Assembly (NCBI RefSeq): GCF_016924655.1
Contig: NZ_JAFFJU010000004.1
Location: 124,001-188,000 of the forward strand
Direction: 5' to 3'
DNA: 64,000 nt
DNA from: Sphingomonas arenae
Lineage (GTDB): Bacteria; Pseudomonadota; Alphaproteobacteria; Sphingomonadales; Sphingomonadaceae
Shown in pieces: positions 50,583 through 50,784 of this stretch (position 1 is the first letter of the stretch; every line of letters begins with the position of its first letter). A program made the translations under genes and the position numbers. The notes beneath the pieces are model-generated. The model ran no database searches. It had not been told where the DNA came from and worked only from the letters and a program-made list of their open reading frames with translations.

Positions 50583-50614
50583 CTGTTCCTTGCCCCCGTT
50601 TGGAGCATCACGGT

Positions 50615-50766
50615 GAGTCCGACGGGACTCGCGGTCAACAGAAGAAGGGTTAACACGGCTTGGAGGGTCGGCGGAACGGAAGGAGTCCGGCTCGTCCCAG
50701 GCACAAGATATTGAGTCCGTTCCGCAGACGAGGACTCAAGACGTGGTGGTGTGACTCAAAGGACTC
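50615..50766. promoter_or_regulatory. Cluster of seven GANTC methylation sites upstream of ccrM
   Basis: GANTC at 50615 (GAGTC), 50626 (GACTC), 50683 (GAGTC), 50713 (GAGTC), 50733 (GACTC), 50753 (GACTC) and 50762 (GACTC). In Caulobacter the ccrM promoter/leader is itself controlled by such sites. About one per 256 bp would be expected by chance. The 202-bp gap holds no other feature I can identify. Confidence 0.8.
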
Positions 50767-50784
50767 GCATCGTGGAGTTCGTGT

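What the first reader, a model, noticed from the sequence alone, without database searches (positions are those of the whole stretch)
50583..50784. Seven GANTC sites in the 202 bp before ccrM
The enzyme's own target occurs at 50615, 50626, 50683, 50713, 50733, 50753 and 50762, about nine-fold above the expectation of one per 256 bp. In Caulobacter ccrM expression depends on GANTC methylation near its promoter. The density suggests a steep methylation-state switch, possibly also affecting a promoter inside the rnhB-ccrM gap.
Basis: partly seen in the sequence, partly recalled or inferred. Interest (0 to 1): 0.75.

Follow-up and report, generated by a model that had tools for sequence, protein, structure and literature searches.

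The report
Methylatable NrdR operator before ccrM
The cluster of DNA-methylation sites in front of a bacterial methyltransferase gene is real and conserved, and it is part of a composite control region in which the likely operator of NrdR, a repressor that senses DNA building blocks, carries the methyltransferase's own target sites, suggesting a testable link between DNA precursor supply and DNA methylation.

Summary
The seven GANTC sites are real. In 464 kb of this genome GANTC occurs once per 712 bp, so the gap is about 25-fold enriched; the next cluster has five. The gap has two conserved parts. (1) A core promoter: TTGAC, then two GANTC, the second exactly 19 nt after the -35 start and followed by A (94 of 115 family loci, 12 of 22 in other families of the order, 29 of 56 elsewhere in the class; shuffles 0.07-0.17%). 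(2) A tandem NrdR-box pair, 33 bp start to start; a matrix from nrdA promoters finds, in the 464 kb, only ccrM and nrdA. Its inner half-sites are TTGAGTC and GACTCAA, so GANTC is built into the operator in 88 (box 1) and 91 (box 2) of 104 family loci, against 1 and 0 of 30 at nrdA. My reading: a methylation-responsive sigma70/GcrA-type promoter plus an operator for the dNTP-sensing repressor NrdR that CcrM can methylate. Binding, sign and methylation effect are inferred. My library searches listed no paper linking NrdR to ccrM; RegPrecise and supplements were not seen.

The parts
49440..50582 (-). ccrM, GANTC adenine methyltransferase (380 aa)
   Evidence: NCBIfam CcrM model NF050803, 631.7 bits, E 2.7e-190 (below that model's Caulobacter-set cut-off of 830)
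50785..51414 (-). rnhB, ribonuclease HII, upstream neighbour on the same strand
   Evidence: NCBIfam ribonuclease HII models
50609..50638 (-). core promoter TTGACC-GC-GAGTC-CCGTCG-GACTC-ACCGTG
   Evidence: TTGAC with GANTC at +19 in 94/115 family, 12/22 outer-family and 29/56 class loci
50633..50638 (-). -35 TTGACC
50610..50615 (-). -10-like CACCGT, 17-bp spacer; its first base is the last base of GANTC site 50615
   Evidence: A at the second place in 80/80 and T at the sixth in 50/80 family cores; strict promoter scan found none
50626..50630 (.). core GANTC site 1
50615..50619 (.). core GANTC site 2, overlaps the -10
50634..50654 (-). GTTAACCCTTCTTCTGTTGAC, one TTAA half-site just upstream of the -35, CtrA-like at most
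50673..50688 (-). GGACTCCTTCCGTTCC block with GANTC 50683
   Evidence: recurs by eye; its GANTC is kept (within 8 bp) in 20/35 genus and 9/69 other family rows
50701..50716 (-). NrdR box 2, ACTCAATATCTTGTGC
50713..50717 (.). GANTC in the inner arm of box 2
   Evidence: 91/104 family rows
50734..50749 (-). NrdR box 1, CCACCACGTCTTGAGT
50733..50737 (.). GANTC in the inner arm of box 1
   Evidence: 88/104 family rows
50753..50757 (.). GANTC kept in part of the genus only
   Evidence: 18/35 genus, 5/69 other family rows
50762..50766 (.). distal GANTC, the best kept of the seven, role unknown
   Evidence: GAGTC 16-18 nt before box 1 in 100/104 family rows

Best explanation
The gap is a composite ccrM control region. 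Its core is a sigma70 promoter with a good -35, a poor -10 and two GANTC sites in the spacer, the second overlapping the -10: the form expected of a promoter whose firing depends on methylation, most likely through GcrA. The two boxes of a tandem operator for NrdR, the ATP/dATP-sensing repressor of ribonucleotide reductase, start about 78 and 111 bp upstream of the -35. In each box the inner half-site is the CTCAA/TTGAG variant, which is also seen at nrdA, and one flanking base completes it to GANTC. Proposed working: NrdR loaded with dATP restrains ccrM when dNTPs are plentiful, so that CcrM is made, together with ribonucleotide reductase, when replication drains the pool; CcrM methylation of the operator and NrdR binding influence each other; fork passage, which leaves the sites hemimethylated, resets operator and core. 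Shown here: the sequence elements, their spacing, conservation and rarity. Inferred: NrdR and GcrA binding, repression as the sign of the effect, and any effect of methylation.
For: GANTC density and rarity; core with GANTC at +19 in 94/115, 12/22 and 29/56 loci against 0.07-0.17% in shuffles, middle base varying; NrdR pair found with an nrdA-derived matrix, only ccrM and nrdA reaching the threshold in 464 kb; published consensus gives the same, 63/77 named loci against 0/77, 0/76 and 1/80 controls; 33-bp spacing inside the range NrdR binds; boxes 73% and spacer 30% pairwise identity; GANTC completed outside the 16-mer in 88/90 and 91/91, 0 of 30 box 2 and 1 of 30 box 1 at nrdA; one NrdR and one GcrA gene.
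Against: No binding, expression or methylation data. The boxes start 78 and 111 bp upstream of the -35, not over it, so simple occlusion of this promoter is excluded; a loop, a roadblock to read-through from rnhB, interference with an activator or an unseen promoter is needed, and activation is possible. The middle base of the GANTC in the boxes never varies (88 GAGTC, 91 GACTC), so the letters may serve a protein rather than CcrM. The GcrA extended motif YGAKTCG is met at core site 1 in only 7 of 83 family loci. A strict sigma70 scan found no promoter. The consensus that picked the nrdA boxes was written after I had seen the ccrM boxes; only the published-consensus tests are free of that. 11 of 115 family rows lack a pair at the chosen score and spacing. 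The distal GAGTC, kept in 100/104, is not explained.
Confidence: 0.5

Rival explanations
1. NrdR does bind here, but only the core promoter uses methylation. The GANTC in the boxes are by-products of letters the protein prefers at this operator, and their methylation does nothing.
For: The middle base is fixed at both box sites while it varies in the core; CTCAA occurs in NrdR boxes at nrdA without GANTC.
Against: The base completing GANTC lies outside the 16-mer and is present in 88/90 and 91/91, and nrdA boxes almost never have it (0/30 box 2, 1/30 box 1). A longer protein site at ccrM could still explain this.
Confidence: 0.25
2. Another regulator with a similar palindrome, not NrdR, binds the inverted repeat ACACCAC-n6-TTGAGTC...GACTCAA-n4-TTGTG.
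For: No binding data; box 1 and, in Novosphingobium and Sphingopyxis, the right half of box 2 are degenerate; the boxes are far from the promoter; a conserved distal GAGTC fits no NrdR feature.
Against: The two best pairs in 464 kb of the own genome are nrdA and ccrM; spacing and palindrome match NrdR rules; near-perfect boxes (15 of 16) stand upstream of ccrM in two loci of other orders (L234, L253).
Confidence: 0.13
3. The whole array is a platform for methylation readers (GcrA, or CcrM itself): many GANTC simply sharpen the response to hemimethylation, and no metabolic sensor is involved.
For: Density; six positions recur in the genus; in Caulobacter ccrM is itself under methylation control (PMC10073500, passages).
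Against: It does not explain the conserved outer half-sites ACACCAC and CTTGTG, the fixed 32-33 bp spacing, the fixed middle bases, or that L004, L010 and L020 keep box 2 without GANTC.
Confidence: 0.1
4. The cluster is a chance accumulation.
For: Two of the seven sites are poorly conserved.
Against: Rarity and position-specific conservation in many genera with a randomised spacer.
Confidence: 0.01

Closest known systems
NrdR operators of ribonucleotide reductase genes
   Same: Tandem palindromes fitting acaCwAtATaTwGtg (PMC4009431, passages), spacer of 16-17 bp within the range bound by four NrdRs (PMC12051234, passages), same matrix as nrdA of the genus.
   Different: Target is ccrM; inner half-sites are completed to GANTC; boxes start 78 and 111 bp upstream of the -35; start-to-start distance 33 (32 in some) instead of the 31-32 seen at nrdA.
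GcrA-sigma70 promoters with methylated GANTC (Caulobacter)
   Same: GANTC between -35 and -10, in Caulobacter tied to activation at 40-60 min (PMC4287350, passages); GcrA recruits polymerase to methylated promoters (PMC7403470, passages).
   Different: Two GANTC, the second overlapping the -10 at a fixed place; the extended motif YGAKTCG (named in PMC7987155, passage) is mostly absent in the family.
Caulobacter ccrM promoter
   Same: A review states that it has two GANTC and that hemimethylation goes with higher ccrM expression (PMC10073500, passages).
   Different: There CtrA drives it (same review); here only one TTAA half-site is present. That the Caulobacter GANTC lie in the leader, not the spacer, is recalled and comes from no call.
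Proteins that shield GANTC from CcrM (MucR, CtrA)
   Same: A DNA-binding protein covering GANTC can block CcrM, also shown with a synthetic CtrA-box promoter (PMC5172544, passages).
   Different: NrdR does not occur in that paper's text and was not seen in this role in the listings; here the covered promoter is that of ccrM itself.

Membership tests
NrdR operator | Palindromic box matching the NrdR consensus | tested here: met
   Pair sum 23 of 32 positions at ccrM, the only pair of 21 or more in 464 kb; matrix score 34.8
NrdR operator | Two boxes about three helix turns apart (14-17 bp spacer) | tested here: met
   17-bp spacer in the window; spacing 33 in 85 and 32 in 23 of 115 family rows; range
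NrdR operator | NrdR encoded in the genome | tested here: met
   One match to TIGR00244 over its cut-off
NrdR operator | Boxes overlap or adjoin the promoter they repress | tested here: inconclusive
   Box 1 starts 110-112 bp before the -35 in 79 of 104 rows; no promoter recognised over the boxes; start sites unknown
NrdR operator | NrdR binds and changes expression | not testable with these tools
   needs gel shift and deletion
GcrA-dependent methylated promoter | GANTC between -35 and -10 | tested here: met
GcrA-dependent methylated promoter | Extended motif YGAKTCG at the site | tested here: not met
   Window site 1 is CGAGTCC; 3 forward and 4 reverse of 83 family loci, 9 of 12 outer-family loci, 5 forward and 7 reverse of 25 class loci; PMC7987155 reports no extended motif in Brevundimonas either. 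Not filed as a member for this reason.
GcrA-dependent methylated promoter | GcrA encoded and bound at the promoter | tested here: inconclusive
   gene present; binding not testable
CtrA-activated ccrM promoter (Caulobacter type) | TTAA-N7-TTAA near the -35 | tested here: not met
   Only one TTAA in GTTAACCCTTCTTCTGTTGAC (read)

The most novel reading that the evidence does not exclude
Across much of the Alphaproteobacteria ccrM is a target of the dNTP sensor NrdR, and CcrM methylates half-sites of the operator that controls its own gene, closing a loop between precursor supply, fork passage (hemimethylation) and methyltransferase synthesis.
Probability: 0.35. Interest if true: 0.87.

Novelty: new variant of a known kind. 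Interest (0 to 1): 0.72.

Why it matters
A conserved NrdR operator at ccrM would connect the cell's dNTP pool directly to the methylation clock of the alphaproteobacterial cell cycle. It would fit reports that nrdA expression is lower without CcrM in Caulobacter (PMC3973325, passages) and that raised dNTPs lengthen the swarmer phase there, with a nrdR deletion pointing the same way (PMC12186491, passages). It would add a second, possibly methylation-sensitive layer to a promoter that already carries GANTC in its core. Gel shifts and a nrdR deletion would decide it quickly.

Tried and rejected
Chance cluster: rejected (and conservation). NrdR-like pairs in 20 of 22 loci of other families of the order: rejected, they lie in the conserved coding end of rnhB (AGYGT...ALKLVG) and were not counted. 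Some class-level pairs (L269, L271, and first boxes such as CCCCCCACCATAGACG in L265) are rnhB coding too, so the class count of pairs is inflated; single boxes of 13 or more of 16 are the safer count, and several of those also overlap the rnhB 3' end (read). TIGR02505 was the wrong model for nrdA (0 of 61 genomes over its cut-off); replaced by the own NrdA protein. A promoter over the NrdR boxes was sought by eye and not recognised; the strict promoter scan found none in the gap. LexA (GTTC-N7-GTTC, recalled) does not fit the TTCCGTTC block. Possible helical phasing of box positions in other orders was noticed and not tested. Shuffles are first-order Markov resamplings, not exact dinucleotide shuffles. 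The nrdA boxes were picked with a consensus written after seeing the ccrM boxes; the published consensus, to which I added a last T from its symmetry, was used as a check. Rows dropped: L021 (no upstream sequence), 11 of 115, L232 (no ccrM alignment).

Full report
Observation. In the window plus twenty 20-kb stretches of the same genome (464 kb of 2.76 Mb) there are 652 GANTC, one per 712 bp. Seven in 202 bp occurs only here; the next independent cluster has five. GANTC is rarer in the window than shuffles predict (127 against a mean of 312), as reported for Alphaproteobacteria (PMC3973325, passages).

Setting. The genome belongs to Sphingomonadaceae: the best named matches to its CcrM are Sphingomicrobium and Sphingomonas records at 81-82%. 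Of 61 genomes of the relatives set, 58 have a strong CcrM match (E 1e-150 or better) and one more only a weak one. I read the region upstream of ccrM in 36 genus loci including the own one, 22 loci of other families of the order, 80 named family loci (L059 repeats L011) and 60 loci drawn from the 160 genomes with a match in a class-wide set. Of these 60, three are of the family and one gave no ccrM alignment, leaving 56 labelled 'same class'. Some gaps in the genus hold only two GANTC because the rnhB reading frame runs on through the boxes; in most of those loci boxes with GANTC are still there.

Core promoter. TTGAC followed by a GANTC exactly 19 nt after its start occurs in 94 of 115 family loci, 12 of 22 outer-family loci and 29 of 56 class loci, against 0.17, 0.07 and 0.09% per shuffled locus; the base after this GANTC is A in all 135. 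A first GANTC stands 6-12 nt after the -35 start in 83 of the 94, 12 of the 12 and 25 of the 29. With a 17-bp spacer the -10 is CAnnnT-like and its first base is the last C of site 2; among 80 family cores its A is invariant and its T is present in 50. The middle base of both sites varies (site 1: 44 GAGTC, 29 GACTC, 6 GAATC, 1 GATTC; site 2: 65 GACTC, 10 GATTC, 5 GAATC), which suggests selection for the methylation target. In Caulobacter, GANTC between -10 and -35 goes with activation at 40-60 min, and 11 of 96 cell-cycle-regulated starts with GANTC have more than one (PMC4287350, passages). GcrA recruits sigma70 polymerase to methylated promoters and speeds opening (PMC7403470, passages); on fully methylated DNA its footprint spans -35 to -10 of ctrA P1 (PMC3667746, passages). 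The genome has one GcrA. The Caulobacter extended motif YGAKTCG is met at site 1 in 9 of 12 outer-family loci but only 3 forward and 4 reverse of 83 family loci, so GcrA is likely, not shown. A strict sigma70 scan finds no promoter in the gap, because the -10 is poor.

NrdR operator. Upstream lies an inverted repeat, ACACCAC-n6-TTGAGTC ... GACTCAA-n4-TTGTG. A matrix made from the tandem boxes upstream of nrdA in 30 genus genomes detects it in most family loci. The consensus with which I picked the nrdA boxes was written after seeing both promoters, so it is not fully blind. With the own nrdA left out of the matrix, the 464 kb of the own genome hold two pairs of score 14 or more: ccrM 34.8 and nrdA 25.2. 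With the published consensus (PMC4009431, passages; a last T added from symmetry) ccrM is the only pair of 21 or more there, and among the named family loci 63 of 77 reach 20 upstream of ccrM against 0 of 77 one kb and 0 of 76 two kb further up, and 1 of 80 inside ccrM. Spacing is 33 in 85 and 32 in 23 of 115 family loci, that is a spacer of 17 or 16 bp; four NrdRs tested bind 14-17 bp spacers (PMC12051234, passages). The boxes have 73% mean pairwise identity, the 15 bp between them 30% (84 rows). One NrdR is encoded.

GANTC inside the operator. Of 115 family rows, 104 have a pair of score 10 or more at 32 or 33 bp (the 11 dropped are listed; L021 had no upstream sequence). In these, the inner end of box 1 is GANTC in 88 and of box 2 in 91, both in 78. 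The completing base lies outside the 16-mer, yet is C in 88 of 90 boxes ending GAGT and G in 91 of 91 starting ACTC. At nrdA, GANTC touches box 2 in 0 and box 1 in 1 of 30. Against: the middle base is fixed (always GAGTC in box 1, GACTC in box 2), so part of the constraint is probably the protein site, and a longer protein site could explain the flanks. A further GAGTC, 16-18 nt before box 1, is kept in 100 of 104; it fits no NrdR feature and its role is open. Sites 50753 (18/35 genus, 5/69 others) and 50683 (20/35, 9/69) are poorly kept.

Beyond the family. In 56 loci outside it, a single box with 13 or more of 16 consensus positions occurs in 8 (null 0.2%) and a pair of 20 or more in 20 (null 1.3%); GANTC touches the pair in 12 of the 20. 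Some of these pairs are rnhB coding sequence, and the 20 pairs in the 22 outer-family loci lie in conserved rnhB codons and are not counted. L253 and L234 have single boxes with 15 of 16. NrdR control of ccrM may therefore be older than the family, but this needs a cleaner test.

Mechanism. NrdR is thought to repress when loaded with ATP or dATP and to release when replication lowers dNTPs (a hypothesis in PMC4009431, passages). I propose that ccrM is held back by NrdR when dNTPs are plentiful and released in S phase, while the core reads its methylation state. Because the methylatable adenines lie in the inner half-sites, NrdR binding and CcrM methylation should influence each other; MucR, and CtrA in a synthetic promoter, have been shown to shield GANTC from CcrM (PMC5172544, passages). 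Weak point: box 1 starts 110-112 bp before the -35 in 79 of 104 rows, so repression would need a loop, a roadblock to transcription from rnhB, interference with an upstream activator, or an unseen promoter; activation is not excluded.

Novelty. Searches of the library for NrdR with ccrM (3 papers), NrdR with Caulobacter (14 papers), NrdR regulogs (10 papers), NrdR boxes (20 of 27 listed; 3) and any two of NrdR, GANTC, CcrM and methyltransferase names (12 of 128 listed) showed, in titles and starts of abstracts, no report of NrdR at ccrM. The main text of a large proteobacterial regulon study has NrdR but no ccrM (PMC5343134, term search), and the Caulobacter dNTP paper has nrdR but no ccrM (PMC12186491, term search). 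Supplements, the RegPrecise database and subscription papers were not seen. Methylation control of ccrM itself is known in Caulobacter (PMC10073500, passages). I therefore call it a new variant: known elements in a combination I did not find described.

Noticed in passing
upstream region or leader of ccrM in L033, L062, L065, L068 and others (41 of 116 family loci): A perfect DnaA box (TTATCCACA, either strand; motif recalled) lies between about -210 and +90 of the ccrM start, in the seen cases just after the core promoter; L001 (the window) is not among them.
   Followed up: partly
L215:14663-14814 (G000:C2, about 84.7 kb): Second-densest GANTC cluster in the 464-kb sample, five sites in 152 bp; its gene context was not read.
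   Followed up: no
window 51442-52632 (-): thiD-like protein of 396 aa in which the HMP-P kinase model covers residues 6-251 only; the C-terminal part, unsearched, looks like a fused glyoxalase/VOC-type domain by eye.
   Followed up: no
   Followed up: partly
G067:C1:806361-807491 and G168:C2:2044924-2046015: CcrM matches in two genomes of one genus each show one in-frame TAA; possibly only an upstream extension of the alignment past the true start.
   Followed up: no
window 50673-50688 (-): A GACTC-n-TTyCGTTC block between operator and core recurs by eye in many family loci even where its GANTC is lost; its binder is unknown.
   Followed up: partly
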